Positions 13,817 through 35,008 are shown, numbered from the stretch's first letter. The stretch is 47,875 nt of DNA from Candidatus Brocadiia bacterium (GCA_013359215.1 JABWCH010000002.1:1-47875); one strand, 5' to 3'. The notes: generated by a model from the sequence alone, not told the origin. Program-made: numbers and translations.

Positions 13817-14055
13817 AAATGTTTTATTGCCATGTTTGTGGATCAACCCATGCCAAAAAAGCTTATGTAAACGAACTCTTTAATATATACGGAAAGCCTG
13901 TCATGGTGGAACAAATTCCCGCTATGGAATGTGCAAGATGTGGAGAAGAAACCTTTGACAGAGAAACGACAGAACGCATTCGGAAAATAGTGCATGGAGA
14001 TGCCAGGCCTTTGCGATGTCTCACTATGGAAGTCTTTTCGTTTAGCCCTGTATAA
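13813..14055 (+). CDS. YgiT-type zinc-finger protein
   Basis: An 80-residue protein with two CxxC knuckles, FYCHVCGS and MECARCGEE, followed by the family motif TFDRETTERIRKIV. YgiT (MqsA N-terminal-like) zinc fingers usually belong to antitoxins or small partners of toxins. The ATG at 13813 overlaps the hsdM stop as ATGA, a typical coupled start. A GTG six bases earlier is also in frame but is less likely. Its place between hsdM and hsdS is unusual. No toxin gene and no MqsA-like helix-turn-helix tail is present, so it may instead regulate or assist the restriction complex. Confidence 0.8.
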   Translation: MKMFYCHVCGSTHAKKAYVNELFNIYGKPVMVEQIPAMECARCGEETFDRETTERIRKIVHGDARPLRCLTMEVFSFSPV

Positions 14056-14096
14056 AAACTATAGGAAAAGAATGGAAATAAAAAAGGAGATTGGGG

Positions 14097-15263: not shown

Positions 15264-15282
15264 GGGATTCAAGGAAAATTCT

Positions 15283-18255
15283 ATGGCGACATTCAATGAA
15301 AAAAACAGTGTGGAATCGTTTGTAATCGGGGAGTTGACAGGAACAGATTTTCCGCCTTGTGGTTTTCTTCGGGAAAAGAAAGACCTCTTTCTCGGACAGG
15401 TTCGCTGGCAATACGTTTCCGCTTCCGAACTTTCTCGCAAAAGTTCGGATATTTTGGTGGAGAGCCTTCTGGCAAAATCGTTGAAAAAGCTCAATCCTGC
15501 TATAGAAGAACAACCAGATCGAGCAGACGAGGTCATCCACAAACTACGAGGGCTTTTGATTACTGTACAGCATACTGGACTGGTTCGGGCAAACGAGCAG
15601 TTCAGCGAGTGGCTGAAGGGCGAAAAAACCATGCCCTATGGTATAAATCAGCAGCATATTCCCATTCGCCTGATAGATTTTGAAAAACCAGAAAACAATA
15701 GCTTTCTTGTCACCAACCAATACACAGTAGCGACTCCTATAGAAAAAATTCCAGACATTGTTTTGCTTATCAATGGCATACCTTTGGTCGTAGGGGAATT
15801 GAAAACACCTGTTCGTCCTTCTGTGAGCTGGTATGATGGTGCATCGGATATCCACGATGATTACGAAAACAGTGTGCCTTCCCTGTTTGTTCCCAATGTG
15901 TTTTCTTTTGCCACAGAAGGCAAATATTTCCGCTATGGTTCTATCCGTATGCCTCTCGAAATCTGGGGGCCATGGAGAGAAGAAGCCAGGAAAGAAGACT
16001 CTACATCGGAAGTGTTTATGGCCGTTGGACTGGAGGAAGTCAGGCAAGCGATCCGTTCCCTGCTCCATCCTCTTGTTGTGCTGGACATTCTGCAACATTT
16101 CACCATTTTTGCCACAGACAGACAAAATCGAAAGATCAAGATCCTTTGTCGCTATCAGCAATATGATGCTACCAATTTGATTGTGCAAAGAGTGATTCAG
16201 GGAAAAATAGACCGTGGACTGGTGTGGCATTTCCAGGGTTCTGGGAAGTCTTTGTTGATGGTTTTTGCAGCACAAAAATTGCGGTCTTCTCCTGTGCTAA
16301 AGAATCCGACCATTTTGATCGTGGTGGATCGAACTGATCTTGATACCCAAATCACGGCCACCTTTAATGCCAGCGAAATTCCCAACGTCGTTACGACCGA
16401 CAGTCGGGAGGAACTCAAACGCCTGCTGCAAGAAGACACTCGCAAAATCATCATTACCATGATCCACAAGTTTGGAGAAGCAGAAGGTATTCTCAACGAG
16501 CATCGGAATATCATTGTGCTGGTGGATGAAGCTCATCGCACACAGGAAGGCGATTTAGGGCGAAAAATGCGAAAAGCTTTGCCTAATGCCTTTCTTTTTG
16601 GGCTTACGGGAACGCCTATCAACCGTAGAGACAGAAACACCTTTTATGCCTTTGGTTCACAAGAAGACGAAAACGGGTATCTCAGCCGATACTCTTTCCA
16701 GCAGTCCATCCAGGATCAGGCGACATTGCCCCTTCATTTCGAGCCAAGACTTGTGTCTATCCATGTTGACAAAGAACAGATTGATCTGGAATTTAGCAAT
16801 CTGACCAGAAACCTCCAGGAGGAAGACCGACGAGAGCTATCCCGACGTGCTGCCCAAATGTCCCATTTTATCAAAACGCCAGACAGAATAGAGAAAATAG
16901 TTGGCGACATTGTGAAACATTACAAGGAAAAAGTAGCACCAGGTGGTTTTAAAGCCCAGATTGTATGCTATGATCGTGAAACCTGTATTTTGTATAAAAA
17001 AGCGTTGGACAAAATCACGCTTCCTGAATACAGCCAGGTTGTAATGACGGTGTCGGAGGATGAATATAAAGATTATAAATTGAGCAAGGAAGACGAGGAA
17101 AAAGTGCTGGACAAATTTCGAGCCCCAGATAGTACTCTACAATTTCTGATTGTGACCAGTAAACTGCTTGCAGGGTTCGATGCTCCGATTTTGCAGACTA
17201 TGTATCTGGATAAACCCCTCAAAGACCACAATTTGCTTCAGGGAATTTGCAGAACCAATCGTCCTTACAAAGGAAAATCTCATGGCCTGATCGTGGACTA
17301 CTTCGGAGTTTTCGATGATGTGGCACGTGCGCTGGATTTCGACGAAGAGGCTGTTAGACAGGTAGTGACCAACATCCAGCAGCTAAAAGATAACTTGGAA
17401 AAGGCTATGATGGATTGTCTGGCATACTTTCCTGATATAGACCGTAGTGCTGCCGACTATAACGCTCTGCTGGAAGCACAGAAATGCCTATCAACAAACG
17501 AAAGGAGAGATGCTTTTGCCAGGGATTTCAGCTATCTGGAACGACATTGGGAAGCGATTTCTCCAGATGCATGCCTAAATTCTCATGAAGACGATTATAA
17601 ATGGCTTTCCAGCATCTACCAATCCATAAAACCAGTAAATGAGACAGGTCGTTTGATCTGGCACGCCTTGGGCGCAAAGACCCTCCAACTGATCCACAAA
17701 AATATTTATGTGCAAGATGTCAACGACAAGCTGGAAACGGTCATGGTCAACGCAGATATTCTGGACGAATTTATCAAAAATCAAAATCCTAAAAAAATAA
17801 AAGAGGTAGAGGTAGAAATTGCTAAACGAATTGCCCAACATCCGAACAATCCAAAATTCATTGCCCTTAGCGAACGACTTCAAAGGCTAAACGAACAGGC
17901 ACAGCAAGGCATTATCAATAGCATTGAATTTCTAAAATACCTGATCAAAATAGCCGAAGATTTGCTGAAAGCAGAAAAAGAAGAGACGAGCAAACAAGAA
18001 CAAAACTCCGCTAAAGCAGCATTGACCGAACTTTTCAATAGCCTCAAAACCCCCAATACCCCTAAAATCATCGAAAATATAGTAAACAATATTGACGAAA
18101 TCGTAAGAATCGTACGCTTTGAAGGATGGCAAAATACAACCAAAGGACAAAGAGAAGTAAAACAAGCTTTACGCAAAACCTTGTTTAAATACAAATTACA
18201 CCAGGATCAGGATTTATTTGAAAAAGCGTACAAATATATCGAACAATATTATTGA
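15283..18255 (+). CDS. hsdR: Type I restriction endonuclease subunit HsdR
   Basis: HsdR pulls DNA through the complex and cuts it far from the site. The 990-residue protein has an HSDR_N nuclease domain with D158 and the GELK motif (E172, K174). The SF2 motor follows: Walker A GSGKS (K322), DEAH at 415-418, LTGTPINR, and LLAGFDAP with ICRTNRPY in the second RecA lobe. The C-terminal helical region joins HsdM. The ATG at 15283 has AAGGA before it and gives the usual N-terminus MATFNEKNSVESF. The frame is open back to 15184 inside hsdS, but that part is not needed. All key motifs are intact, so the system looks functional. Confidence 0.95.
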   Translation: MATFNEKNSVESFVIGELTGTDFPPCGFLREKKDLFLGQVRWQYVSASELSRKSSDILVESLLAKSLKKLNPAIEEQPDRADEVIHKLRGLLITVQHTGLVRANEQFSEWLKGEKTMPYGINQQHIPIRLIDFEKPENNSFLVTNQYTVATPIEKIPDIVLLINGIPLVVGELKTPVRPSVSWYDGASDIHDDYENSVPSLFVPNVFSFATEGKYFRYGSIRMPLEIWGPWREEARKEDSTSEVFMAVGLEEVRQAIRSLLHPLVVLDILQHFTIFATDRQNRKIKILCRYQQYDATNLIVQRVIQGKIDRGLVWHFQGSGKSLLMVFAAQKLRSSPVLKNPTILIVVDRTDLDTQITATFNASEIPNVVTTDSREELKRLLQEDTRKIIITMIHKFGEAEGILNEHRNIIVLVDEAHRTQEGDLGRKMRKALPNAFLFGLTGTPINRRDRNTFYAFGSQEDENGYLSRYSFQQSIQDQATLPLHFEPRLVSIHVDKEQIDLEFSNLTRNLQEEDRRELSRRAAQMSHFIKTPDRIEKIVGDIVKHYKEKVAPGGFKAQIVCYDRETCILYKKALDKITLPEYSQVVMTVSEDEYKDYKLSKEDEEKVLDKFRAPDSTLQFLIVTSKLLAGFDAPILQTMYLDKPLKDHNLLQGICRTNRPYKGKSHGLIVDYFGVFDDVARALDFDEEAVRQVVTNIQQLKDNLEKAMMDCLAYFPDIDRSAADYNALLEAQKCLSTNERRDAFARDFSYLERHWEAISPDACLNSHEDDYKWLSSIYQSIKPVNETGRLIWHALGAKTLQLIHKNIYVQDVNDKLETVMVNADILDEFIKNQNPKKIKEVEVEIAKRIAQHPNNPKFIALSERLQRLNEQAQQGIINSIEFLKYLIKIAEDLLKAEKEETSKQEQNSAKAALTELFNSLKTPNTPKIIENIVNNIDEIVRIVRFEGWQNTTKGQREVKQALRKTLFKYKLHQDQDLFEKAYKYIEQYY

Positions 18256-19069: not shown

Positions 19070-19079
19070 GATAAATCCC

Positions 19080-19772: not shown

Positions 19773-19774
19773 AT

Positions 19775-20230
19775 ATGGCTTATCGTATTTGTAAAATGAT
19801 AGAAATTGAAAGTGGGCATATGCTCTCCAAGCATCCAGCAAATTGTAAATTTCCACATGGACATTCTCGTAAGATCGAGATACTTTTGGAAGCAGATACA
19901 CTCGATAAAAACGATATGGTCTGTGATTTTGCAATCTTAAAGGAGTTAATGAAAAACTTTTTGAATAACTTCGATCATGCTCTGTGCATAAATACCAGTG
20001 ATCCTATGTACGATACGCTCAAAAAAGCATACGGAGAAAGAATTATTGGATTTGAAAAACAAGATCCGACAACCGAAGTCGTAGCAAAATTGATATTCGA
20101 TAAGATAAAAGAAAACCTTGATGCTTATTGTAAACACCCTAAAATCTCATTTCCAATAGCAACAAGCGTCCGTTTGAAACGAGTACGAGTTTGGGAAACT
20201 TCAACATCGTGGGCCGAATATGAAGAATAA
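19775..20230 (+). CDS. queD: 6-carboxy-5,6,7,8-tetrahydropterin synthase QueD
   Basis: QueD turns dihydroneopterin triphosphate into 6-carboxy-tetrahydropterin, the second step of preQ0 synthesis. The 151-residue protein has the zinc-binding histidines of the PTPS family in IESGHML and CKFPHGHS, the catalytic cysteine just before the HGH motif, and FDHALCIN further on. PTTEVVAKLIFDKI and VRVWETSTSWAEY match the family C-terminus. It overlaps folE2 by 11 bp. Confidence 0.94.
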   Translation: MAYRICKMIEIESGHMLSKHPANCKFPHGHSRKIEILLEADTLDKNDMVCDFAILKELMKNFLNNFDHALCINTSDPMYDTLKKAYGERIIGFEKQDPTTEVVAKLIFDKIKENLDAYCKHPKISFPIATSVRLKRVRVWETSTSWAEYEE

Positions 20231-21175: not shown

Positions 21176-22000
21176 TCAAAAAAAAGGTAATTCTGGTTTA
21201 TGAGAAATAAAATTTTGATATGCTTTTTTCCATGTTGGCGAACAGGGTTCTTGATTGACTAGTTCTCGTTTTTCTTTAGGAATAAAGTATCCTCTTAAAA
21301 AGTGCCCACACAGCCGGCAACAAGCATCTAAAACAGGTAACATTTCTGATGGCTCTTTTGGCATCTGTAACTTTCCTAAGCATAGCCCAAATACACGGTC
21401 AATCCCTCCTGCTACACCACATGGATAGTAACCGTGCCTATTTAAAGCAAGCCCACAATATGTTGTTATCCAACATCCATTTAAAAAGTTTGTTTGTTGA
21501 TAACCAGGTAAGTCTATTGGTGCTATGTTAAAAGGTTCAAAAGTGGATTGATCTGGGCTTTGCTTTACCGTATCTTTTATAACAATTGATTTGGGTAATT
21601 TTTTCAAAATAGAATGTACAATGGGACCATAGCCATTCGAAATCAAGATTAATTTGGTTTCAGGAGAATAAAAATTTTTATAATTTTCTAAAATTTTTAA
21701 AATAGCAAGAATATCTGGGTGCAGCGTGGGTTCTCCTCCCAAGATACGAATCTGTTCCCATTTTTTATGGTTCTGCTGGCTTTCAAAAACAAATTTTTGA
21801 ATTTGCTGAATGGACATTTGTTCTTGAGTAGGTGCCTGGCGACAAGAACGATCACAGTTTTTACAATGCAGATTGCAGTTCCATGTTACATCTATTTCTA
21901 TCCTGTTTATATTGGTGTGAAATTGTGTGCCTAAAAGTCGAGTAATAATTCTGTTAATGCGAATTTTGCGAAGCAATGATTTAATGAATAGATTTGTCAT
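21176..22000 (-). CDS. Radical SAM protein, paralogue 1
   Basis: A protein of about 274 residues with a radical SAM core: CNLHCKNCDRSC (CxxxCxxC for the 4Fe-4S cluster) and RILGGEPTLHPD for SAM binding. The C-terminal part has extra cysteines (TYCGLALNRHGYYPCGVAGG and LDACCRLCGHFL), which could hold a second cluster as in SPASM or twitch domains. It is closely related to the gene just upstream, so the two arose by duplication. The likely ATG is at 22000. A second ATG at 22024 is in frame, and either start overlaps the upstream gene. It is the last gene of the nine-gene leftward operon. The substrate is unknown. Confidence 0.8.
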   Translation of the reverse strand: MTNLFIKSLLRKIRINRIITRLLGTQFHTNINRIEIDVTWNCNLHCKNCDRSCRQAPTQEQMSIQQIQKFVFESQQNHKKWEQIRILGGEPTLHPDILAILKILENYKNFYSPETKLILISNGYGPIVHSILKKLPKSIVIKDTVKQSPDQSTFEPFNIAPIDLPGYQQTNFLNGCWITTYCGLALNRHGYYPCGVAGGIDRVFGLCLGKLQMPKEPSEMLPVLDACCRLCGHFLRGYFIPKEKRELVNQEPCSPTWKKAYQNFISHKPELPFF

Positions 22001-22892
22001 TGGTTTTTCTTTTCTGAGAGCCATAAAAAGTAAGATTAGGTATTTTCTCCGAGTATTCTGTATAAATTTTTTGCCAGGAAAGAGAGATTAGTTCTTCTTG
22101 CAAAGTTTTTCTGAAATTCCAGGGGATAAAATGACCACTTGTGAAACGGCCACAAAGTGGACAAAACTTTTCAAAATGGTCTTGCATTGGGTCATCGTCA
22201 TCGGGTAGTTCTTGATGCCCGATATTGTAACCCACTACTCGATCAATCCCTCCAGCTATGGCGCAACAATAGTAACCGAAAGGAGTAAGCCCCATTCCAC
22301 ACAGTTGTGCAATTTGGCATCCATTGCTGAAAGAAGTACACTGAAAATGAGCCAAATCCAAAGGTGCTACATTGAACGCTCCAAAATGCTCATTGACAAT
22401 TCCTGTCTTTTCAGAATTGTCAATGAGGATATCTGATGGAAGACTGGAAATCATTTCTTTCGTTTTGGCACTCAAGCCGTTAGTTGCCAATTCAATAACT
22501 GTACCATCAGATTGGAAAGAACTACGTAGCATCTCTATAATTTTTAATAAATCTGGATGCATGGTAGGCTCTCCACCCAAAATACGGATTCGCTTCCATT
22601 GCTTTCTTTTGTTTTGAGATTCTTTTATAAACAGCTCGATCTGGCTTGCTTTCATATAGAGTTGAGAAGGAGCCTGGCGACAAGAACGGTTACAATTCAA
22701 ACACTTAAGGTTGCAATCATAGGTAATGTCAATCTCTATGAAATCGCGAGATCTTTTGTATTGTGGTCCTAAGAGAATGGTACATAATTTGTTGGTTCTA
22801 ATAAAACGATGAATAGCTTTCAAAAAAAAAATTGTATGACCAATAGGCTCTAGCCAACCTTTATATCTGATCCTTGGGCCAAATGAAGCCAT
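21981..22892 (-). CDS. Radical SAM protein, paralogue 2
   Basis: A 303-residue radical SAM protein with CNLKCLNCNRSC and RILGGEPTMHPD, the same order as its neighbour. The C-terminal cysteines recur in IAQLCGMGLTPFGYYCCAIAGG and FEKFCPLCGRF. The shared AGGIDRV motif and cysteine spacing show that both copies keep the same auxiliary site. The ATG at 22892 has GGAGGGG six bases upstream and is preferred over the GTG at 22907. It overlaps the end of the glycosyltransferase-phosphatase gene by about 30 bp, so translation is coupled. Confidence 0.82.
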   Translation of the reverse strand: MASFGPRIRYKGWLEPIGHTIFFLKAIHRFIRTNKLCTILLGPQYKRSRDFIEIDITYDCNLKCLNCNRSCRQAPSQLYMKASQIELFIKESQNKRKQWKRIRILGGEPTMHPDLLKIIEMLRSSFQSDGTVIELATNGLSAKTKEMISSLPSDILIDNSEKTGIVNEHFGAFNVAPLDLAHFQCTSFSNGCQIAQLCGMGLTPFGYYCCAIAGGIDRVVGYNIGHQELPDDDDPMQDHFEKFCPLCGRFTSGHFIPWNFRKTLQEELISLSWQKIYTEYSEKIPNLTFYGSQKRKTNDKSIH

Positions 22893-24360
22893 ATAGTGCC
22901 CCTCCACTAAATTCCATTCTTCCTGTCAAATAATAACAAAAGGCTGTGTTTAGATAGCCTTGGGTAAGTATAATAGAGAAACCTGTAGGATCAGTATATT
23001 TTTTGATAGACTGTATTGCATGATTTACCCATTCGTTATAAGGCGTAACTATAGAACTCGAAATTTTTCCAGAAATCCAATTTGCTACCAACTGACTCCA
23101 TCCATACTTTTTTTTCATCTCAACCCATTCTTCATGTTGGAAAAATTTGCCTCCCAATAATTCTTCCAAAGTAATAATTTTTGCCTTTCCTCCTACCCCT
23201 TGTTGTATGAGTAATGCAGTTTGATAACACCGATCTATAGGAGAGGTCAAAATCACCTTAGGTGTTTGAGGTAGATAACTTGCAAATTTCAACACTTCAT
23301 TTTTAGACGATGATAAAATAGATGCTTTATAGTTTTCAGATAATGTAGCATAAGGCGAAATAACATCTTTTTCTGCGTGGCGAAGTACCAAAACAAATCT
23401 TTCTTCATTTTTTTTCTTAATTTCTTGTAAAATTTGATCTTGAGATAAAATGAGATGATGATAAAAATCACCTGTAGAAGAGTTCCATGCCTGGGTATTT
23501 TCTACAAGATCATGATGTTCATATTGTATCTCAGGGATATTACCTTTTTCCACTTGTTCCAGAATATACATCCATAGAGATTGGTCTTTCTTGAGTGTAT
23601 TCATGGGGTGGATAAAAAAACTTCTTCCGTCACCTCCTCGTAAAGATAGATAATTCATTTGCTTCTGTTTTTCGTGAAGAGAACGGTACCAGCTCAACTT
23701 TAGCCTGCTATTTTCTATGGTATTTGGAAGGGGTCTTAAAGCAAAAAGCTTGCGGCGGTCTATTAAACAGAAACGTACTTCTGGTACAAATCCGCCAGGA
23801 GGGGTCGAATAAGGCACATAAGCAGCATGATTGTGAGGAATATTAAAGGATACGGAAATATTTCTTTCGTCTTCATCTAGCGCAAAAAGCATATCGCTCA
23901 AATAATCGTGATAAATATCCCTGCGTCCAATCATGACATCCACATCCGCCTGAAGCAAATAATCTCCTTGAGCTATCTCAAAACCAAATAATTGAGGAAC
24001 AAGAGGCACATTCTGAATATTATGAGTTTCTGCAATCTCATACCCAAACCACGTCTGGTTGATTTTTTTGATATGACGTACATCCGTTGGACTAGAACGC
24101 CAGAAATCAATGATGCCTTCATCTACGAGACGATTCAATTCGGTGATAACCATCTCCTCATCGGGTTCATCATATTGCCGCAAAAAGTCTTTTCTCTTTG
24201 TGTCTGCAACCACATAGGTTTCTATGAAATTAGGATGCTTACCCAATTGTTTGGTAATATGCAATATCAATCTTCGCAAGTTTCTCCAATCTTGAGAACA
24301 TACTTTTATCATTAAACTGACGGTTCCATCATGAACCTTTCTATATTGGACTTTTTTCAT
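22861..24360 (-). CDS. Glycosyltransferase-like / histidine phosphatase fusion protein
   Basis: A 499-residue two-domain protein. Residues ~10-290 resemble a GT-A fold glycosyltransferase: VSLMIKVCSQDWRNLRRLI near the start, and ADVDVMIGRRD supplying a DxD-type metal site. Residues ~315-499 are a histidine phosphatase (phosphoglycerate mutase-like) domain, with the catalytic VLRHAEK motif (R327, H328) and VILTSPIDRCYQTALLI as the second half of the phosphate pocket. A C-terminal histidine that normally completes the pocket is not obvious. Fusion of a transferase to a phosphatase suggests both act on one phosphorylated or nucleotide-sugar intermediate, but this is inference. The start overlaps the kinase-like gene as ATGA. 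Confidence 0.7.
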   Translation of the reverse strand: MKKVQYRKVHDGTVSLMIKVCSQDWRNLRRLILHITKQLGKHPNFIETYVVADTKRKDFLRQYDEPDEEMVITELNRLVDEGIIDFWRSSPTDVRHIKKINQTWFGYEIAETHNIQNVPLVPQLFGFEIAQGDYLLQADVDVMIGRRDIYHDYLSDMLFALDEDERNISVSFNIPHNHAAYVPYSTPPGGFVPEVRFCLIDRRKLFALRPLPNTIENSRLKLSWYRSLHEKQKQMNYLSLRGGDGRSFFIHPMNTLKKDQSLWMYILEQVEKGNIPEIQYEHHDLVENTQAWNSSTGDFYHHLILSQDQILQEIKKKNEERFVLVLRHAEKDVISPYATLSENYKASILSSSKNEVLKFASYLPQTPKVILTSPIDRCYQTALLIQQGVGGKAKIITLEELLGGKFFQHEEWVEMKKKYGWSQLVANWISGKISSSIVTPYNEWVNHAIQSIKKYTDPTGFSIILTQGYLNTAFCYYLTGRMEFSGGALYGFIWPKDQI

Positions 24361-25016
24361 ATAATATCCCCAAACTGTTCCAGAAACTTATAAAAGCCAG
24401 ATAATTCTGGGAGGCTTGAATCGTTCTTTGAAGCTCTTTGCAGATGCCTGAGATTAGGATGATCTGCCCAATACATCATAAGAAAAGCTCGCTGTAAATT
24501 ATGGCAAATAGCCTTTTTTAGAAAAGGACGTAAATCATAACCAATATCTACCAATTTTAATTGATTTGAAAACATGCGAAAACTATCTGGTTTAAACCCT
24601 CCATACATCATCTGTAGCCCACAAAGGTCTTTTATCATTTGAACTATATTTGATGAAAATCCTCCAGTATATGGAGTAGAATATACATATTCATACCGAA
24701 GGAAGTATATTCCAGAAAAGCAGATCATTTCCATCTTATTGGGAAGCCAGGAGAAAGGGGTCTTACTATGATTCTCGCATAGCATTCTGATGCGATCTAT
24801 AATACTGTTTTTGATGCTATTAAAATCCATTCCAAACATCTCTTGCCAATTATCGAATTCCGACATTGTTTCCCAACCATCAAATATTTTATAAACTTTA
24901 AAAAAATCTGTGAATACTACGCCTTCTCTTCCCATGCCTAAGTAAGTTATTTCTTGTTTAAAAGCAATTTTTTTTACTGTTTGAAGTGCTATCTCAATTC
25001 GATCTAATGTATCCAT
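24357..25016 (-). CDS. Small protein-kinase-like protein
   Basis: A 219-residue protein with a kinase-like fold. LGMGREGVVFTDFFKVYKIFD (~residues 26-46) has a glycine-rich loop followed by a lysine strand. A shortened catalytic region, GGFKPDSFRMF, is followed by LKLVDIGYDLRPF in place of the usual DFG. The canonical HxD catalytic aspartate is not visible, so it may be a pseudokinase or a divergent sugar or antibiotic kinase. AAGGA lies before its ATG, one base after the stop of the upstream glycosyltransferase, and its own stop overlaps the fusion gene. The substrate is unknown. Confidence 0.6.
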   Translation of the reverse strand: MDTLDRIEIALQTVKKIAFKQEITYLGMGREGVVFTDFFKVYKIFDGWETMSEFDNWQEMFGMDFNSIKNSIIDRIRMLCENHSKTPFSWLPNKMEMICFSGIYFLRYEYVYSTPYTGGFSSNIVQMIKDLCGLQMMYGGFKPDSFRMFSNQLKLVDIGYDLRPFLKKAICHNLQRAFLMMYWADHPNLRHLQRASKNDSSLPELSGFYKFLEQFGDII

Positions 25017-25017
25017 A

Positions 25018-25839
25018 CTAATCCTTACGCTCCGTTATCCATTCTGGATTTATCCCAAAAAAACGGGAACATCTATCAAAAAATATTTCTTGATCTTGTT
25101 TATCCATCATCTGGGCATATTTGGTATAAAAAATTCGCAGCCCAGTCAATTTTTCTTGAGTACCCTTACTAGACAAAGCCTTTCTTTGGCTTTCTATATA
25201 ATACTGGACAGTATGAAATCCGGTAAATGCCCACTTTATATCAGGCTGTTGCAAAAGACGAATAGCCATATCACGGTCGAGAGTACTTGGCATATTTTCA
25301 TCATAACCGCCAATCGTTAGTAGATGTCGGGCCATAATAAAAGTATTCGAACCTTGCCATCCTGGATTTCCTCTAAGAAAATCAGAAATATGCAAAGTCG
25401 CAAGCAACGGTTGATCAAATTTTTCTTCATCCTTTATTACTGTAAGACCGGAGACTACAGAGGTTGCATTTCGTAACTTGGCAGCCTCTACGCATAACTG
25501 AAGATGTTTTTCATGCCATGTATCGTCATCATCATGAATTGCAATCCAACAATCAGGCATAAGATTATTAGCGTATTGAATGGCCCGATTCCATGAATGC
25601 GCCAAACCAGAATGACAGCTATTTTGTAGATATTCAATAATAAGACCAGCTTCTTGATAAACACCTATAATTTTTTGATTAGATTCAAAATATTGCGAAT
25701 CTGAGTCATCTACAATAATAACCCGAAATGCACAAAAACTCTGATGTAATATGGTACTCAAACATCTACTATCTAATAATTCAGGTCTGTTGCGTGTAGC
25801 AACAACTACAATAATTGGGAAATCGGCCTGGGATAACAT
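25018..25839 (-). CDS. Family 2 glycosyltransferase (A)
   Basis: A 273-residue GT2 enzyme. It opens PIIVVVATRNRPELL, the nucleotide-binding strand of GT-A folds, then VIIVDDSD. The DxD-like metal motif is the run AIHDDDDTWHEKHL at ~residue 101. GSNTFIMARHLL and STLDRDMAIRLL fit the acceptor side. No membrane segment is present, so it should act in the cytoplasm. AAGGA precedes the ATG. It overlaps the upstream glycosyltransferase by about 34 bp. Confidence 0.85.
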   Translation of the reverse strand: MLSQADFPIIVVVATRNRPELLDSRCLSTILHQSFCAFRVIIVDDSDSQYFESNQKIIGVYQEAGLIIEYLQNSCHSGLAHSWNRAIQYANNLMPDCWIAIHDDDDTWHEKHLQLCVEAAKLRNATSVVSGLTVIKDEEKFDQPLLATLHISDFLRGNPGWQGSNTFIMARHLLTIGGYDENMPSTLDRDMAIRLLQQPDIKWAFTGFHTVQYYIESQRKALSSKGTQEKLTGLRIFYTKYAQMMDKQDQEIFFDRCSRFFGINPEWITERKD

Positions 25840-26684
25840 ATTAATTCCTTTTGAGATGTTCTTTCATAGGCCCATTTTAAAAGCAATTGGCGACTTTTTA
25901 AATAAGAAGACTTTTTTCGATTAACACCGCTCAAAGAGCCTGAAATAGAATAAACAGAATGCATCAACTCTTCATCTATCATTACATCTTTTTTCCAGAT
26001 AGAAGTCAAGATATCTACTGTAAACCAATGATCTTCTCCGCTTGTAATAGCAGGATAAAAAATAGGAATTTCAGGGCGAATCACAACATTGCACGAGGGA
26101 AGTTCTGTTTTGAAAATCCCTATCGACATCCCCTCGAGTTGCTCCAAAAGGTATTTTCTTTTGAAAAATTTGTTATCTGCTAAATTGGGAACAGCCTGAA
26201 TAGTACCATTACAAATTTGATAATTGCTTCCTATTAACGCTAATCCTGGACGGCGTAAGCCACAGTTGAAAGAGAAATATTCTCTGCGAAATCTGGATTG
26301 AATTTGACATAGTGTCCTGTTATCAAAAAAATAATCATCAGCGTCCAGTCTAACAATTGTTTTGAGATTTCTGGCATATTTTCTTGATAGCCATAAAATC
26401 AGATTCCGTGTTTTATATGCTTTGGCAAATTCAACATTTATTATTACAGTTCTATGTTTATCTGCTACATGATTTACAACATTCTGCCAATGATCTATCG
26501 AAGAATCATTAACTAAAACAAGAAGAAATTTTCCCCGAATACCTTCCTGAGAAAATACAGACTGTAAGCTTGCCTCCAAGCTTGATGCATTATTGTGGAC
26601 TGCCATTCCTATAATCATCTCTGGGTTAAGTTCTCGAATGTAATGGGCAGCCCTTTTTATAGAGAATTTAGAAATATTCTGCAT
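25806..26684 (-). CDS. Family 2 glycosyltransferase (B)
   Basis: A 292-residue GT2 protein, with IIGMAVHNNASSLEASLQSVF at the N-terminus, LLVLVNDSS next, and the metal motif VRLDADDYF at ~residue 116. GEDHWFTVDIL near residue 215 fits the family's ED catalytic region. The ATG at 26684 has TAAGGT upstream and is preferred over a TTG at 26690. It lies 60 bp after the 600-residue gene in the same operon. It is only distantly similar to glycosyltransferase A, so the two probably add different sugars. Confidence 0.82.
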   Translation of the reverse strand: MQNISKFSIKRAAHYIRELNPEMIIGMAVHNNASSLEASLQSVFSQEGIRGKFLLVLVNDSSIDHWQNVVNHVADKHRTVIINVEFAKAYKTRNLILWLSRKYARNLKTIVRLDADDYFFDNRTLCQIQSRFRREYFSFNCGLRRPGLALIGSNYQICNGTIQAVPNLADNKFFKRKYLLEQLEGMSIGIFKTELPSCNVVIRPEIPIFYPAITSGEDHWFTVDILTSIWKKDVMIDEELMHSVYSISGSLSGVNRKKSSYLKSRQLLLKWAYERTSQKELICYPRPISQLL

Positions 26685-26744
26685 ATCCAACCTTACCTTG
26701 ATTTTTTCATAAAACGTGGCTATTTTTCTTGATACACGTACGTA

Positions 26745-28547
26745 CTATTCATATCCCAGTAAAATAAATCGGTGTACCCATGCATCGCTCTCTTGTGCTA
26801 CTTTATTCATCAAGGAAATGAAGCATTCAGAAATGTCTGATTGCTTTGCTCCTGCCTCAAACTTATGGCTAAATACGACAATGTAGAGTCTGGCCCAAAA
26901 TTCACCTTCTTCTAGTATAACAGGATTGCCTTGTTCTGTCAGTAGTTGCCAATCAGAAAGGCATTCTACCCATTGAGGTGGAGTTGAAGTCATGGTTCCT
27001 TTCGTATCTTCCCAAAACACAAAAATGAAGCCAGGAGATGTGCTATTGATATGTACACTTATTGGGTGCTTTTGTTCTAAGGCAACCTCTCGCCGTTTGT
27101 TTGGAGCATTTTCTCCTGGAAAGGACGATATATCAAGGAATTCATCTTCTAACTGAGGGGTAGATATATAAAGCAATTCATCTACTTTTTCTGTTTGGAT
27201 ATCTACAAAGGGAATGGAATCAGGATTATGACAAAATGCTTCGCTAAATGCCTGCAATCGCCACGGATTTTTGACATCCACTTTGTGCTCTATTTGCATT
27301 CGATGGACAAAGTGGCGGACTGAAGAATCCTGGCTAATAAACAAAGCACGGTCTATGGCTTCCATTAAATCTCGTGGTAAGCTTTCTTCGACAAAGTCAA
27401 TGAGATTCTCTTGAGAAAGAAGATTATCCTTGCAAAACGAAATATCTTTTGTTTTCTGTTTTTTCATACTTTTCAAAACTTCCTCTAAAAAAGTTTCATG
27501 TTTTTTTAACATTTCCCATCCATCCTTGTCTTGCGAATTCGGAGGTTGCCCCAATCCCAGTTTTTTCCATAAGAGTTTTATTCGGTTGAACATAGGGGAT
27601 AGAATCAAAGGGATAGTCAATACTTTTTCTAAATCCGAAGCATCTTCTCTGTATTTGGCAAGTGGATGTTTTTGAAATATATCTTCCATGACAAGTAGCA
27701 ATTTCTGCTTTATAGAATTCGGCAATCGGTCAGAACCATTCCAGAAAGGGTCTTGATCTGGACAGGTGCTAAATAAAGTTTGTTTCACTTCCTCTGGTAA
27801 AATTAAATCCAGATAGATTACCAGATACCGCCATGTGGCAAGCGCAGTGAGTCGGCTTTTTTTGATATTGTTTGAATTTTTTTTACTTTGTGCCAACTCT
27901 CTATAGGCTAAAGGAAGTGAGCTAATAGATGTTTGTAAATGCTGGAAATGTATTGGACAGATTGGACTTTCAGCCAAAGCAAAATCCAAGAGTGGGCTAA
28001 GCCAGCTATCCACATCATCCCTCCACAATAGTGCCATAGTATGGCAAGATTGCTCTATCAATTTTTTTTGCACCAGATATAGTTTTTCTAAAGCACAAGA
28101 TAAAGACAAGGTATCTATTGTTTTTTCAGTGCAAGAATTTTTATGTAATTTTTCAACGTCTTTATACTTCAAATCAGCATGAAGGCAAACCTGATATGCT
28201 TTCTTGCCAAGCAAAAGACTCATTACCCATGCCCCATGATTTTGGAACAATTCTTGGAGGTTGGATGCACATGGTGTTTTTTGGAGCGTCAGTGGTTCTT
28301 TAATCCAATGATCTGGTATTTCTTTAAACCATTTCAAAAATTTTTTGGCAGCTCCTCTCCAGGGATCTTTAGGGTTGCCAAAATCAGAATGCCAATCAAT
28401 GGGTTTGCTCAATTTATCTTCATAAATGAGTAATCCTAATTCTAAATACTTCAGATATTCCTCTTCTTTATCATCAGGAATCTGACTTCGCCGCCAATTT
28501 ACATCTCCTATCCGTTCTAAAAAGCTTTCATTCTGCTCTGGCATCAT
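26745..28547 (-). CDS. Protein of unknown function, 600 residues, paired with CHAT protease
   Basis: I do not recognise this family. It is mostly helical for the first ~430 residues. The last ~130 look beta-rich (HPISVHINSTSPGFIFVFWED, ILEEGEFWARLYIVVFSH), as in small jelly-roll or Ig-like domains. The start is one of two tandem ATGs (28547, 28544), and GGGAGGAG favours the second. The gene begins inside the end of the CHAT protease gene (20-bp overlap), so the two are made together. A direct partner or proteolytic substrate of the CHAT protease is a reasonable guess from position alone. No membrane segment or signal peptide is seen. Confidence 0.55.
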   Translation of the reverse strand: MMPEQNESFLERIGDVNWRRSQIPDDKEEEYLKYLELGLLIYEDKLSKPIDWHSDFGNPKDPWRGAAKKFLKWFKEIPDHWIKEPLTLQKTPCASNLQELFQNHGAWVMSLLLGKKAYQVCLHADLKYKDVEKLHKNSCTEKTIDTLSLSCALEKLYLVQKKLIEQSCHTMALLWRDDVDSWLSPLLDFALAESPICPIHFQHLQTSISSLPLAYRELAQSKKNSNNIKKSRLTALATWRYLVIYLDLILPEEVKQTLFSTCPDQDPFWNGSDRLPNSIKQKLLLVMEDIFQKHPLAKYREDASDLEKVLTIPLILSPMFNRIKLLWKKLGLGQPPNSQDKDGWEMLKKHETFLEEVLKSMKKQKTKDISFCKDNLLSQENLIDFVEESLPRDLMEAIDRALFISQDSSVRHFVHRMQIEHKVDVKNPWRLQAFSEAFCHNPDSIPFVDIQTEKVDELLYISTPQLEDEFLDISSFPGENAPNKRREVALEQKHPISVHINSTSPGFIFVFWEDTKGTMTSTPPQWVECLSDWQLLTEQGNPVILEEGEFWARLYIVVFSHKFEAGAKQSDISECFISLMNKVAQESDAWVHRFILLGYE

Positions 28548-31377
28548 CTCCTCCCTTCCATAGCATAAAATTCCAGGTGCGAGGGTCGTTCAATCGTAAA
28601 AGGAATTCTTCCTCTTGTGCTAGATATCCATCTTCCCATTTAGGACACAGTCCTAAAAGATTGTCACAATTACTTTCTCCTTTGATGCTTGTCAATCCAA
28701 GATTTTGTAAAAGAAAACGGCTCAACGATTGTTTCCATTTTTCTCTTTCATTCAGGTTGGTGCTTTCTTTTGATATGGTACGATAGATTTCCATAAGCTC
28801 AGGAATAGCTTGGTGAAAGTACCATTTCATCGTTTCATTGAAAGCCATTTCTTCATCAGGATAGCGATGCAACAAGTGATAATAGCAGAAGGCTATGATT
28901 GCTGTAGGGAAGTCGTGAACAGGATACAGAGGAGCAACCACCGAATTCACTCCTCTGCACATGAATTTGTCAACCATAGACATAGCTTCAGTGGACATTT
29001 TTTCGAACATGCCAGTTTTAAATGGCATGCCTGTGCTGCAAGCCCAAAGTTCCACTCCATGAATACCATAGAAAGGTAGTCCCACCATATCAGGTGACCA
29101 TACCTGACGGAATTTATTATGCTGGAATTGTCCTAAATTTTCTTCTTTAACAGGTTCTCGATCATCAAATATAAGTAAACTACCTGCTCCGCAATGGAAT
29201 TTTTGATTACCAATTTCCATTGTATCTTCAACACCATGGCAGTAAAAGCCTAAACGTGTAGCCGTAGAGATAGTTTGAGCTACATTATCTGAATTGGCTT
29301 CATAATATTTGTTTGCAAGTCCATTGTCTGCGCAAGTCTGCATAACCATATTCCCCCAAGGATGAGGTGTCCTTTTGCTAAGACCTGAAAAAAGAACAGA
29401 TTCATTTCCATTACGCCTTTGTATTGGTTTGTGATAACACAAAAGAGAAGGACAATAGCTTACACCCTCCACCCGATCTATCAAACGTACTCCATTTTCG
29501 TCTGGAATATTGGCCCATGAGATCATTCTTGCCCCTAAGACAATCGGAATCAATGTAAATCTGCGGAAACCTCCTCCAATCCAAGGGTTTGTAACATCAT
29601 AGATGGCTTTCGCAAAAGCAAAGCCATTTTCATCTGGTTTGATTGGGCTGTTGTCAGTATTGCCAATATTCCATTCGACAAAGTCATGGCAGAATTCGTC
29701 TGTAAAATCTGCACTACTGAAAGTAGTTTGAAATAGTATTTGATTAGATGTTGTATCGTATCCGAATCCAATTCCTATAAGCCGAAAGTCTTCCTGCAAC
29801 ATTGTAAGATAAATAAAGGCACGGCCAGGATTGCGTTTAGCAATCGTTTCAATATCTTGGCGAGTCAATAAGGGATAAGATGTGTATTCTTTGATGCTTG
29901 TATCGCCTAGGGAAAACGTCGCCATTATTGTCATAGTCCGTGTCATGTCAAACAGATCATTCTTGTCGTATCCCGCTCTTATAGCTTCCTGGAACTTCTG
30001 GCGAATTTGTTTATCCCATTCTCTGAGTTTTTCATGATTTTCTTCCTCTGTCAAGCTTAATATCCTAGAAGATAGAGCGTTGTATTGAGTAAGATACCTT
30101 TCAAAATCTTCTACAAAAATATCAATTCTTCTGAACAGATTTGCGTAATTTCCTATGAGGTTTAAAACTGCATAACAAAAACGGCTTTGGGAGTTTGTAG
30201 GCTTGAAGGTCATATTGAGATAATTTATCTTAAAATGGAATCGAAAATAATTTTCCGACAGCAAAATGACATCAGCAGGAATTTCTTTATCCAACGCCCA
30301 ATGTACGAAGGTATTCACAAATCCATCTTTTAAATAGCAACATTTAGTAAAATAAGATAACCCTTTGGGTTGTAATAAAACTGGAAGACATTTTTGTAGC
30401 ACTTCATTCGCTAACTTCAATATTTCTTTTGTAGTAGCCACTGGTGGTGTATGGCGAGCAAGATAAAACAGGTTTTTTGCAAACTCCTCCAGCTTATCAA
30501 AATTTTGCGCAATATCCCATTCGCGAATTTGTTGCCCTAAAACTTCTTTGGCCTTAGTGAGATCCTTTGTAGCTTCAAAAAGTTGCAATGCCTCATTTAT
30601 ATGCTTGCAAGCATAGAGAGCATCATGAGTTCCTAATTCCGATAAAATTGGAATATATAGCCTGAGCTCCTTTATGAAATTTTTGTGGATTGGTTTCTCC
30701 AATCTTTGAAGCAAATTAAAGCGCATCAATGCAAGTTTTGCCAGTTCAATAGGCGGTATATCCAAACGTAGGCATTGCTTATCGATCAATATTAGCATCT
30801 TTTCCATACTCGCTCTATCTTGTTCGCTGCTCCAAGCTGCCAATAAAGCAATGGCATAAGCAACACCTGCACTACAATTCCCTATTTCATATTCCTTTAT
30901 GCTTTGCCAAACTAAAGTATGAGCTTCGCTGGCAGATCCTAAATGTAGGCTTTCTTCCTGGCTTTCCATGATACATAAAGCCATTTTTATTCTTGTATCA
31001 GCTAAATTAACAGAATTTCCTACTTGTTCCTTGATATCGAGTGAATCTTTTAGTAGCTTTAAAGCTTTCAAAAAACGCTCTCCTCCGAGCGTCTTATCCA
31101 GGCGATAGCACTCTGCCAACTGACTGAGCCCAATAGCATACTCAATAGGCTCTATATAATGTTTGAAATGTTCCAGTGTTTTTTTCATCAAATCACGATA
31201 CATCGCGAGAAATCGAGGAACCATTCGATCAGGGATAAAGCCAAACACCTCAAGCAAATCATAGACAGGGCCTTTCCCTGACATTTCTGGCATGCAATAT
31301 TCCAAAAAATCTTTCTGTTCCATTGTGAGGGATTCATAAAATTTTTTTTGTTCTTTTTCCATTTTATTCACATTCAT
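28528..31377 (-). CDS. CHAT-domain protease with N-terminal helical repeats
   Basis: A 949-residue protein. The first ~480 residues are TPR-like helical repeats (YAIGLSQLAECYRLDKTLGGER, ALYACKHINEALQLFEATKD). The C-terminal ~350 residues are a CHAT (caspase-HetF-associated with TPRs) domain. The catalytic histidine is H714 in GFYCHGVED and the catalytic cysteine is C780 in LWACSTGMP. The VNSVVAPLYPVHDFP strand is also typical. CHAT proteases are cysteine peptidases that act in several bacterial death or defence systems. AAGGAG directly touches the annotated ATG, so a GTG two codons later may be the true start. It follows the B12-radical SAM gene by 19 bp. Confidence 0.85.
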   Translation of the reverse strand: MNVNKMEKEQKKFYESLTMEQKDFLEYCMPEMSGKGPVYDLLEVFGFIPDRMVPRFLAMYRDLMKKTLEHFKHYIEPIEYAIGLSQLAECYRLDKTLGGERFLKALKLLKDSLDIKEQVGNSVNLADTRIKMALCIMESQEESLHLGSASEAHTLVWQSIKEYEIGNCSAGVAYAIALLAAWSSEQDRASMEKMLILIDKQCLRLDIPPIELAKLALMRFNLLQRLEKPIHKNFIKELRLYIPILSELGTHDALYACKHINEALQLFEATKDLTKAKEVLGQQIREWDIAQNFDKLEEFAKNLFYLARHTPPVATTKEILKLANEVLQKCLPVLLQPKGLSYFTKCCYLKDGFVNTFVHWALDKEIPADVILLSENYFRFHFKINYLNMTFKPTNSQSRFCYAVLNLIGNYANLFRRIDIFVEDFERYLTQYNALSSRILSLTEEENHEKLREWDKQIRQKFQEAIRAGYDKNDLFDMTRTMTIMATFSLGDTSIKEYTSYPLLTRQDIETIAKRNPGRAFIYLTMLQEDFRLIGIGFGYDTTSNQILFQTTFSSADFTDEFCHDFVEWNIGNTDNSPIKPDENGFAFAKAIYDVTNPWIGGGFRRFTLIPIVLGARMISWANIPDENGVRLIDRVEGVSYCPSLLCYHKPIQRRNGNESVLFSGLSKRTPHPWGNMVMQTCADNGLANKYYEANSDNVAQTISTATRLGFYCHGVEDTMEIGNQKFHCGAGSLLIFDDREPVKEENLGQFQHNKFRQVWSPDMVGLPFYGIHGVELWACSTGMPFKTGMFEKMSTEAMSMVDKFMCRGVNSVVAPLYPVHDFPTAIIAFCYYHLLHRYPDEEMAFNETMKWYFHQAIPELMEIYRTISKESTNLNEREKWKQSLSRFLLQNLGLTSIKGESNCDNLLGLCPKWEDGYLAQEEEFLLRLNDPRTWNFMLWKGGDDARAE

Positions 31378-31396
31378 CTCCTTTTGAAAGTCAATT

Positions 31397-32647
31397 CTAT
31401 CTTGCTATATTGATATTTTTACAGGCACTATAAGCTTCTTCAATCCATTTCCCGATTTTATCTTTGCTTTGGCTATGAAATCCACCACCTGCTTTTAGGT
31501 TATAATTTGATAAAGGCGAGCCTGGCAATGGGGTAAATCGAGTAAATTGTAATTTTTCTGGATTCACTCGCTTTGCCAAATCAATAGAGTCCTTGATGGT
31601 TGTTTCGTTTTCTCCAGGCAATCCTATAACAAAACCAATGCTTCGATCAATTTTTACCTTTTTAAGTATTTCCCCACCCATCAACAATCGTTCAACCGTA
31701 GTTCCTTTTTGTATATTGTCTAAAATTTTTTGAGAACCAGACTCAAATCCAAGATAGACTTGATGGCAGCCAGCTTCCTTCATAGCCAGAGCAATTTCTT
31801 CAGTAATTTGGTCTGCTCTAGCATTGCAAAACCAATCAAAATTTAACTTTCTTTCTGTTATACCGTGGCATAAATCAAGGATTCTTTTATGATCTATAGT
31901 AAAAGCATCATCCACAAAAGAAATTTCTCTGACTTTTAACTTTTCAACAACATAAGTAATAAAATCTAACACTTGAGAAACTGGCCATCCTCTCAGTTTT
32001 TTTCCCATGATTGCAGGACTGCTGCAAAATGAGCATTTGTGAGGGCAGCCCCTCATAGTCATCAATGTTATCATTGGCTTGCTTTTTGCATCAGGACACC
32101 AATAATTTTCAATAGGCAAGTCATCCATTTTAGGAAAAGACAAACCATCGAATTTTTGTATATGCAGAATGCTGTTGCTACAGATAGTCTCTTTCCCTTG
32201 CCTATAACATATGCCTTCCATTTCTGGAATTTCACCTTCTATAATTTTTATTGCTACTTTGTGAAAAATTTCCTCTCCTTCTCCACGAATTATATAATCC
32301 ACACTTGGACATTTTTCCAATAGATCGTACGGAGCCAACGTCGCATGAGGTCCACCAACTACCACTTTTATTGCAACACCCTTTGCCCATTTGGCCCATC
32401 TTTCTACAATATCTAATGTAAAAGTGGTTGCAGTCAAACCTAAAATTTTAGGTTGCCATCTCATGATTTCGCGTCGAGCATTATCTTCATTCCAAAATAG
32501 GGCTTCAGCATCTATGACTTTTATACGAATATCATCATTCATTCTAGACCCTGCTAATTGGCATAACCCAAGAGGCGGATAAATAGATTTTGAACGAGTA
32601 AAACTACTGCATATACCTTGCGGTTGTAATAAGATAACTTCAACCAT
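31397..32647 (-). CDS. B12-binding domain radical SAM protein
   Basis: A 416-residue enzyme with an N-terminal cobalamin-binding domain (~1-150: EVILLQPQGICSS, YPPLGLCQLAG, KVVVGGPHATLAPYDLL) and a radical SAM core (~175-400) with MRGCPHKCSFCSSP for the iron-sulfur cluster and GLPGENETTIKDS for SAM. Such enzymes often methylate unreactive carbons or act in lipid, cofactor or peptide modification. The ATG at 32647 has GGAG 8 bases upstream. The frame is open to 32731 but lacks a good start there. As the first gene of the leftward operon it probably lies next to the promoter. The substrate is unknown. Confidence 0.9.
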   Translation of the reverse strand: MVEVILLQPQGICSSFTRSKSIYPPLGLCQLAGSRMNDDIRIKVIDAEALFWNEDNARREIMRWQPKILGLTATTFTLDIVERWAKWAKGVAIKVVVGGPHATLAPYDLLEKCPSVDYIIRGEGEEIFHKVAIKIIEGEIPEMEGICYRQGKETICSNSILHIQKFDGLSFPKMDDLPIENYWCPDAKSKPMITLMTMRGCPHKCSFCSSPAIMGKKLRGWPVSQVLDFITYVVEKLKVREISFVDDAFTIDHKRILDLCHGITERKLNFDWFCNARADQITEEIALAMKEAGCHQVYLGFESGSQKILDNIQKGTTVERLLMGGEILKKVKIDRSIGFVIGLPGENETTIKDSIDLAKRVNPEKLQFTRFTPLPGSPLSNYNLKAGGGFHSQSKDKIGKWIEEAYSACKNINIAR

Positions 32648-33423
32648 AAGTCTTCTCCCTACTCTATTTTTTTCTATGAATAAGTCATATATTGTCTTTC
32701 TAAAAAGAATAGGGATAAAATTCACTGTCATTTTCCCAATTTTCTAAAAAAAATATGGTTATATTTTACGACACGTGCTAAAGAATACCTATCCTGTAAA
32801 CACTGCCCTCCCTATATTGAGTGTATTCAAGTTTTTAAGTCAATTAATAAAAAATACTTATAATCATTACTTTTTATGTCTCAATCCATAAATGCTTAAA
32901 TTTTTCAAAAGAGCCAAAATAAAGACCTAAGTATTTGGCGGACTGTTGATAAGAATACTTGAATGCACTCATATTGTTTTGCTTTTGGTGAGGTGTCCGA
33001 AGGTTTTTTAGGCTTGGATAAGAGGTAAAAATAGGCTGTTATGTGAGAGATGTCAAATCTGATTTTGGAATTTGGAATTATGGCGGTAATGGAAATCAAT
33101 TTCCAAAATCGCCAAATCTTCGGGAGACCAGGATACCGATGTGTTTGTGTTTCGGGTGGTGGATGGCGATGGATAACTAATGATTGTAAGAAAATATTTT
33201 TAATAAGGAATAAGAAAAAATTTTCTCTTTTGAAGAAAAAAATTTCTTTATATAATGAATGAATCAAAACTAAAAGTAATGAATTCGAAATTAAATCTAT
33301 ACAGATAAAGTAGTTAAAAAATATCATACAAAATTATAGAAGGTGGCACAGAATATGCATAAATGAATTTCAGTACGATCAAAAGGAAGTTTCTTGTATT
33401 CACATGAAATGAAAGGAAATTTT
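32648..33423. other. Intergenic region, 776 bp, between two divergent operons
   Basis: Separates the leftward nine-gene operon from the rightward TerY-like operon and must hold both promoters. It includes a pair of inverted 14-bp sequences at 32819-32970 and a G-rich non-coding-looking segment at ~32990-33170. The longest frame (leftward, 140 codons) is low in quality and has no ribosome site, so no gene is called. Confidence 0.6.
32819..32970. repeat. Spaced inverted repeat, 14-bp arms
   Basis: GAGTGTATTCAAGT (32819-32832) and ACTTGAATGCACTC (32957-32970) are inverses with one mismatch, 124 bp apart. This could be a small non-autonomous element or a regulator-binding pair. No target duplication was recognised. 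Confidence 0.45.
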
Positions 33424-34104: not shown

Positions 34105-34131
34105 CCTATTAAGAATTGGAGATCAGCAGTT

Positions 34132-34960: not shown

Positions 34961-35008
34961 TGACATGCTTTAAGCGCATTACAGCATCCTAGTAGTAAAG
35001 GAATCAAA

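What the first reader, a model, noticed from the sequence alone, without database searches (positions are those of the whole stretch)
21176..32647. Nine-gene operon combining three radical SAM enzymes, glycosyltransferases, a kinase-like protein and a CHAT protease
All nine genes point left. Every junction overlaps or is under 70 bp, with ATGA-type coupling in places, so they form one transcription unit. The order is B12-radical SAM, helical-repeat CHAT protease, unknown 600-residue protein, GT2, GT2, kinase-like, GT-like/histidine phosphatase fusion, radical SAM, radical SAM. I know of no described defence or biosynthetic system with this set. A plausible reading is that the sugar and radical enzymes build a modified product that the CHAT protease system senses, guards or releases. 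The other reading is a glycan or natural-product cluster beside an unrelated CHAT pair.
Basis: partly seen in the sequence, partly recalled or inferred. Interest (0 to 1): 0.85.

Follow-up and report, generated by a model that had tools for sequence, protein, structure and literature searches.

The report
Modular glycan-assembly operon with CHAT protease
Six of the nine genes are a planctomycete's unfused copy of an undescribed sugar-building enzyme assembly, found in many unrelated bacteria as one giant protein, to which this lineage has attached a caspase-like protease, an unknown partner protein and a third radical enzyme.

Summary
The nine-gene operon is real: 21176-32731, minus strand, all junctions between -47 and +54 bp. 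It is not one conserved system. Genes 4-9 (two GT2s, a kinase-like protein, a GT-A/phosphatase fusion, two radical SAM enzymes) are the unfused form of a patchily distributed module. I found it at 54 other independent loci: Pseudomonadota, Planctomycetota, Bacteroidota, Treponema, Myxococcota, Verrucomicrobiota and one MAG labelled archaeon. The kinase-like and GTc domains share one polypeptide at all 54; elsewhere GTs, epimerase, methyltransferase, phosphatase or radical SAM domain join them, up to 2008 aa. UDP-sugar epimerases, UDP-glucose dehydrogenases and a SLOG protein recur beside it; no polysaccharide exporter or polymerase was seen to. Genes 1-3 (B12 radical SAM, CHAT protease, 600-aa orphan) accompany the module at none of the 54, and the latter two occur in none of 293 other planctomycete genomes. 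In gammaproteobacteria the module sits in restriction/defence islands, in three genomes between hsdR and hsdM. Best reading: a cytosolic oligosaccharide or glycoconjugate assembly line carried as island cargo, here with a lineage-specific CHAT trio. Product, acceptor and any antiphage role are unproven.

The parts
31397..32731 (-). Gene 1: B12-binding/radical SAM protein, 444 aa (CPHKCSFC at 229)
   Evidence: Pfam Radical_SAM 3e-22, B12-binding 1.1e-17; best NCBIfam HpnJ, BchE, PhpK-type, all far below cut-offs; no homologue at any other module locus
28528..31377 (-). Gene 2: helical N-terminal half + divergent CHAT peptidase domain, 949 aa; His714 and Cys780 signatures present
   Evidence: Pfam CHAT E=0.0012 for the C-terminal half, below curated cut-off; dyad motifs; no homologue in 293 planctomycete genomes, 72,556 plasmids or the module loci
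26745..28547 (-). Gene 3: 600-aa orphan protein, probably helical with a C-terminal beta-rich part; overlaps gene 2 by 20 bp
   Evidence: no Pfam, NCBIfam or PADLOC match; absent from 293 planctomycete genomes and viral contigs; single-sequence AF2 model uninformative (pLDDT 36)
25806..26690 (-). Gene 4: GTa, GT2-family glycosyltransferase (TTG start likely)
   Evidence: Pfam PF00535 1.8e-6; orthologous domain fused to kin-GTc in 18 loci
25018..25839 (-). Gene 5: GTb, GT2-family glycosyltransferase (GNPGWQGSN motif shared across phyla)
   Evidence: Pfam PF00535 3.9e-16; present at 52 of 54 other loci; alignment A3
24357..25016 (-). Gene 6: kin, protein-kinase-like domain, 219 aa; catalytic-loop positions degenerate here (GFKPDS for N/D-x-K/H-x-x-N)
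   Evidence: family profile hits protein kinases in PDB (YabT, 3.8e-6); in one polypeptide with GTc at 54 of 54 other loci; motif table
23446..24360 (-). Gene 7, N-terminal domain: GTc, GT-A fold glycosyltransferase-like domain with invariant DxD
   Evidence: AF2 pLDDT 95.2, pTM 0.93; Foldseek to COLGALT1 and chondroitin polymerase K4CP, E 3e-6 to 1e-5; invariant D126/D128
22861..23424 (-). Gene 7, C-terminal domain: histidine-phosphatase-like (RHxE kept, second catalytic His replaced by Gln)
   Evidence: Pfam His_Phos_1 E=4.6e-4, just below cut-off; homologous domain next to or fused to GTc at 6 other loci
21981..22907 (-). Gene 8: rSAM2, radical SAM with CxxxCxxC and five invariant C-terminal Cys
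   Evidence: Pfam 1.3e-8; alignment A6 of 21 members, 36-51% identical
21176..22024 (-). Gene 9: rSAM1, paralogue of gene 8 (42% identical)
   Evidence: Pfam 1.8e-8
12323..18255 (+). Neighbouring type I restriction-modification locus (hsdM, hsdS, hsdR); hsd genes also flank the module in gammaproteobacteria
   Evidence: Pfam; shared neighbour family

Best explanation
Genes 4-9 are a cytosolic glycan-assembly module: a set of GT-A glycosyltransferases (GTa, GTb, GTc, elsewhere also GTd) organised around a protein-kinase-like domain, with tailoring by either a radical SAM enzyme (the branch to which the window belongs) or a methyltransferase with a SLOG protein (the other branch), and a histidine phosphatase in some members. 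SHOWN by computation: homology, recurrent fusion into one polypeptide, the two branches, recurrent sugar-nucleotide partners, no exporter or polymerase among the listed recurrent neighbours, GT-A fold of GTc, residency in defence/restriction islands in gammaproteobacteria. INFERRED: the GTs act in turn on one acceptor, using UDP-uronic-acid or UDP-pentose-type donors supplied by the adjacent epimerases and dehydrogenases; the kinase-like domain phosphorylates or caps the growing saccharide (as WbdD-type kinases do), the phosphatase reverses or trims this, and the radical SAM enzyme installs a radical modification; the product is a short oligosaccharide or glycoconjugate that stays in the cell. 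In the window the kinase-like and phosphatase domains have lost catalytic residues and are more likely binding parts. The upstream trio (B12 radical SAM, CHAT, 600-aa protein) is a lineage-specific addition to the operon. At most, the B12 enzyme methylates the product and the CHAT/600-aa pair acts as a protease-sensor pair on the same transcript.
For: 52 loci from one conserved-motif scan of 84,980 species genomes plus more from 392 planctomycete genomes; kin and GTc in one polypeptide at 54/54 independent loci, GTb at 52, GTa at 28, rSAM at 22 (11 fused to GTc), phosphatase at 6 (5 fused). Single polypeptides carry GTb-epimerase-GTa-kin-GTc-GT-rSAM (L007) or GTb-kin-methyltransferase-GTc-GT-phosphatase (L028). 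GTc tree: rSAM-bearing loci form one clade, 97/99; window pairs, 97/94, with an archaeon-MAG copy whose order is GTc-GT, phosphatase, decayed rSAM, matching the window's GTc-phosphatase, rSAM, rSAM. Neighbours: SLOG LDcluster4 15, epimerase 12, UDP-Glc dehydrogenase 3 of 139 non-gamma neighbour genes, no exporter or polymerase family among those listed. Island residency: 218 PADLOC families in 121 neighbours versus 20 in 121 control genes.
Against: No enzymatic activity or product is known for any member. Exporters could be encoded elsewhere in these genomes, so a surface glycan is not excluded, and only the 25 commonest families per scan were listed. The kinase-like domain has Asn instead of the usual catalytic Asp in most members, so phosphorylation may not occur. 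rSAM enzymes of this Cys pattern mostly act on peptides (general knowledge), and the acceptor could be a peptide or protein. The CHAT trio shares GC3 and tight coupling with the module in the one genome seen. Defence-island residency is clear only in gammaproteobacteria.
Confidence: 0.65

Rival explanations
1. One integrated defence system: the sugar/radical enzymes make a modified product that the CHAT protease and its 600-aa partner sense, guard or release.
For: Nine genes in one tightly coupled transcription unit with uniform GC3; the window is a defence island with type I RM, Mrr, YhcG-type nuclease and a Mokosh-like cluster.
Against: CHAT, 600-aa protein and B12 radical SAM absent from all 54 other module loci; CHAT and 600-aa protein absent from 293 sampled planctomycete genomes. 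The genome holds at least 16 other CHAT matches over the Pfam cut-off, so one lying beside an operon is not striking.
Confidence: 0.12
2. The module itself, without CHAT, is an antiphage or anti-mobile-element system that makes a glycosylated small molecule or modifies host nucleic acid or protein, as island cargo. (Compatible with the best explanation: it adds a role to it.)
For: Gammaproteobacterial copies lie inside hsdR-hsdM intervals (L027, L029, L031) or next to hsdR, McrBC, GmrSD or Wadjet-type genes; strong excess over same-genome control genes; very patchy distribution (7/392 planctomycete genomes, 2/395 genomes of the Shewanella insulae order incl. the centre and one partial); SLOG partner, a family linked in the literature to nucleotide-based conflict systems (PMC7159879).
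Against: In Bacteroidota and several Pseudomonadota the neighbours are mostly ordinary genes plus SLOG/epimerase; islands also collect non-defence cargo; no meaningful PADLOC match for genes 3-7 (gene 4 has only a weak stray hit); not tested experimentally.
Confidence: 0.3
3. An ordinary cell-surface polysaccharide locus of the ABC-transporter, chain-terminated type (WbdD/ORF6-O7-like).
For: Kinase + methyltransferase + GT2 modules in one chain, as in K. pneumoniae O7 ORF6 and E. coli O9a WbdD/WbdA (PMC11231755, PMC3482155); sugar-nucleotide genes adjacent.
Against: No ABC-2 exporter, Wzx or Wzy family among listed recurrent neighbours; rSAM and SLOG partners have no counterpart in the passages read on those loci; WbdD appears only at E=0.99, through its methyltransferase domain.
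Confidence: 0.2
4. A peptide natural-product (RiPP) maturation cluster in which rSAM enzymes and GTs decorate a small precursor peptide.
For: rSAM C-terminal Cys pattern resembles auxiliary-cluster enzymes; nearest solved relatives are Tes (7tol) and the radical SAM protein 5wgg.
Against: No precursor ORF has room inside the overlapping operon and no recurrent short gene was seen beside the module, though ORFs under 80-110 aa were not compared; no RiPP NCBIfam model above cut-off.
Confidence: 0.08

Closest known systems
WbdD/WbdA, E. coli O9a O-antigen (kinase-methyltransferase chain terminator with GT polymerase; PMC3482155)
   Same: Protein-kinase-like domain paired with a SAM methyltransferase and GT partners acting on a glycan
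   Different: Domain order and GTs differ, no ABC exporter nearby, kinase loop mostly has Asn for catalytic Asp, and radical SAM, phosphatase, epimerase and SLOG parts are extra
ORF6 of K. pneumoniae O7 (MTase-kinase-coiled coil-GT2-GT2; PMC11231755)
   Same: Kinase, methyltransferase and two GT2 modules in one polypeptide
   Different: Its kinase resembles AmiN-type kinases, whereas ours matches eukaryotic-type protein kinases; the locus is an exported O-antigen locus
GT-A enzymes COLGALT1 and chondroitin polymerase K4CP
   Same: GTc fold and DxD
   Different: 14-16% (COLGALT1) and 7-10% (K4CP) sequence identity; no sequence-level PDB hit
Prokaryotic viperin (pVip)
   Same: Weak generic radical SAM match (1.2e-9 and 2.7e-11, partial)
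   Different: Match covers only the SAM core and scores far below the NCBIfam cut-off (33 of 180 bits)
CHAT-containing conflict proteins
   Same: CHAT fold signature with His and Cys
   Different: Far from Pfam CHAT (below cut-off); partner and radical SAM neighbour not seen elsewhere

Membership tests
WbdD-type kinase/methyltransferase chain terminator | Eukaryotic-type kinase domain in glycan assembly protein | tested here: met
   kin profile hits protein kinases, best E 3.8e-6; fused to GTs at 54/54 other loci
WbdD-type kinase/methyltransferase chain terminator | Methyltransferase domain on the same protein | tested here: not met
   present in the SLOG branch (L028, L045), absent from the window and not detected in the rSAM-branch proteins examined
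WbdD-type kinase/methyltransferase chain terminator | Adjacent ABC glycan exporter | tested here: not met
   none in the window; no ABC-2 family among listed recurrent neighbours
CHAT peptidase | His/Cys dyad in HG and ACxTG motifs | tested here: met
   H714, C780
CHAT peptidase | Profile match above curated cut-off | tested here: not met
   18.8 bits against 24
Prokaryotic viperin | Full-length match to viperin model at cut-off | tested here: not met
   32.6 and 33 bits against 180
Histidine phosphatase | RHG-type motif plus second catalytic His | tested here: not met
   RHxE kept, second His is Gln in the window; His kept in the five relatives aligned
Radical SAM with auxiliary cluster | CxxxCxxC and conserved C-terminal Cys | tested here: met
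   invariant in 21 sequences, five C-terminal Cys
Antiphage defence system | Residence in defence islands | tested here: met
   gammaproteobacterial loci against same-genome controls; not tested with controls in other clades
Antiphage defence system | Protection against phage | not testable with these tools
   needs an experiment

The most novel reading that the evidence does not exclude
The GT/kinase-like/radical SAM (or methyltransferase + SLOG) assembly is an unrecognised cytosolic glycoconjugate-based immune or stress pathway, spread horizontally as island cargo across at least six bacterial phyla, and in this planctomycete it is coupled to a CHAT protease that responds to its product.
Probability: 0.15. 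Interest if true: 0.9.

Novelty: new variant of a known kind. Interest (0 to 1): 0.6.

Why it matters
It reveals a recurrent, largely unannotated assembly of four to seven enzyme domains, often fused into one 1,000-2,000-residue protein, in many unrelated phyla. The repeated fusions define the composition and order of the pathway, so its product can be sought directly. Its residence inside type I restriction loci makes it a concrete candidate for a defence or self-labelling role that can be tested in culturable Shewanella, Marinobacter or Pseudoalteromonas.

Tried and rejected
Viperin membership for the twin rSAMs: generic core match only. WbdD homology: only the methyltransferase matched, at E=0.99. 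Phage origin: no relative of GTc in 2.9 million viral contigs, nor of gene 3; one plasmid hit, a 607-kb Salinivibrio replicon. Relatives of CHAT and gene 3: none found. Another CHAT locus of the same genome related to this pair: none among the eight loci compared. AF2 model of gene 3 from a single sequence: useless. Promoter/terminator scan: no more sites than in shuffles. A link to preQ0 metabolism (queC-queE-queD-folE2 beside the operon, a Vut_1/YhhQ-type transporter beside two Treponema copies) was considered but rests on two kinds of locus only. Literature searches found no description of the set; the key 2015 SLOG paper was not held.

Full report
OBSERVATION. Nine minus-strand ORFs lie at 21176-32731 with junctions from -47 to +54 bp and uniformly low GC3. 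In transcription order they are: B12 radical SAM (444 aa), CHAT protein (949), orphan (600), GTa (294), GTb (273), kinase-like (219), GTc-phosphatase (499), rSAM2 (308), rSAM1 (282). The genome is a 6.39-Mb MAG in 576 contigs. Its phylum is Planctomycetota, inferred because G025, reported as same phylum, has its match on a contig of the same length (29,847 bp) as the Planctomycetota contig in L026.

RELATIVES OF THE SUGAR HALF. One tblastn hit, in a Salinivibrio replicon, and one in a genome of the same phylum showed that GTc is fused to the kinase-like domain and other GTs. A motif scan of 84,980 species genomes with the GTc alignment gave 52 loci, and a sample of 392 planctomycete genomes gave seven including the window. 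Profiles built from the nine window proteins were run over all ORFs of these loci. Removing duplicates leaves 54 independent loci: kin and GTc in one polypeptide at all 54, GTb at 52, GTa at 28, rSAM at 22, phosphatase at 6; CHAT, gene 3 and the B12 radical SAM at none. Loci were selected by GTc, so the kin figure is the informative one. The window is the only case seen in which kin and GTc are separate genes. Many loci are cut by contig ends, so counts of partners are lower bounds.

ARCHITECTURES. Fused forms include GTb-epimerase-GTa-kin-GTc-GT2-rSAM (L007, 1902 aa), kin-GTc-GT2-rSAM (L008), GTa-kin-GTc-GT2 (L002), GTb-kin-methyltransferase-GTc-GT2 (L045) and the same with a histidine phosphatase (L028). 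The GTc tree separates an rSAM branch (support 97/99) from the methyltransferase/SLOG loci. The window falls in the rSAM branch as sister (97/94) to a copy in a MAG labelled archaeon. That copy is followed by a phosphatase gene and a decayed rSAM, the same order as in the window. The tree mixes phyla, which points to horizontal transfer.

RESIDUES. GTc is a GT-A fold (AF2 pLDDT 95; Foldseek to COLGALT1 and K4 chondroitin polymerase; invariant DxD). The kinase-like family keeps the Gly-rich loop, the Lys and the DxG Asp. The catalytic-loop Asp is Asn in 48 of 60 sequences and Asp in 10. The window has G and S at the two loop positions (GFKPDS), so it is probably inactive. The window phosphatase lost its second His. 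rSAM members share CxxxCxxC and five C-terminal Cys.

NEIGHBOURS. Outside the gammaproteobacterial rSAM-branch loci the recurrent neighbours are SLOG cluster 4, NAD-dependent epimerases and UDP-glucose dehydrogenase. In those gammaproteobacteria an unknown gene of about 256 aa and, where present, rSAM mostly lie on the opposite strand, and hsdR sits upstream in five of twelve loci counting L020. In L027, L029 and L031 the module lies between hsdR and hsdM/hsdS. PADLOC on 121 neighbours gave 218 families at E<=1e-15; 121 genes from elsewhere in the same genomes gave 20, nearly all CRISPR type III models. These are counts of models, not of genes, so the excess is qualitative. No exporter or polymerase of surface polysaccharides was among the listed families; only the 25 commonest per scan were shown.

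THE CHAT HALF. Gene 2 carries the CHAT dyad motifs but scores below the Pfam cut-off. Genes 2 and 3 were not found in 293 other planctomycete genomes each, and gene 2 not in plasmids. The same genome has at least 16 other CHAT matches above the cut-off, so a CHAT gene beside an operon is not unusual here. Genes 2 and 3 overlap by 20 bp and are likely a pair. Whether they act on the module's product cannot be decided from one genome.

MECHANISM. Shown: membership, fusion, order, branches, fold, context. Inferred: sequential GT action on one acceptor with uronic acid or pentose donors, phosphorylation or capping by the kinase-like domain where its loop is intact, tailoring by rSAM or methyltransferase, and an intracellular product. 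The nearest precedents by design are WbdD and the O7 ORF6 protein, but an ABC exporter is missing and the tailoring enzymes differ.

VERDICT. Operon confirmed; one-system reading not supported; the sugar half is a new variant of modular glycan-assembly enzymes with an unexplained island association; the CHAT trio is an orphan addition.

Noticed in passing
window 33394-47874: Right flank: TerY-like vWA, R2K ATP-grasp, protein kinase, MkoA-like helicase (1.2e-96), weak MkoB match and a PDC-M26A-like AAA protein, i.e. a Mokosh-like cluster with kinase/vWA additions.
   Followed up: partly
window 18371-21053: By eye, queC, queE, queD and a folE2-like gene (preQ0 synthesis) lie between hsdR and the operon, convergent with it; two Treponema module loci (L006, L008) have a Vut_1/YhhQ-type transporter directly upstream.
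   Followed up: partly
window 2512-13816: YhcG-type nuclease with an RNA polymerase alpha-CTD domain fused at its C-terminus, Mrr endonuclease, AAA_14/DUF4143 ATPase, resolvase, and a trypsin-like protease with MORN repeats.
   Followed up: no
G000 (own genome): At least 16 CHAT-domain matches above the Pfam cut-off in one 6.4-Mb planctomycete MAG.
   Followed up: no
L005 1-10105: A MAG labelled archaeon carries two copies of the module on opposite strands, one with a decayed rSAM gene (2902-3558).
   Followed up: partly
L002 16544-17314, L025 11538-12311 and 9 other gammaproteobacterial loci: Conserved family of about 250-300 aa with no Pfam match, on the opposite strand directly after the fused GT protein.
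   Followed up: partly
L028, L036, L045 and 14 other loci: SLOG cluster 4 protein immediately or closely downstream of the fused GT protein, suggesting a nucleotide-linked step in that branch.
   Followed up: partly
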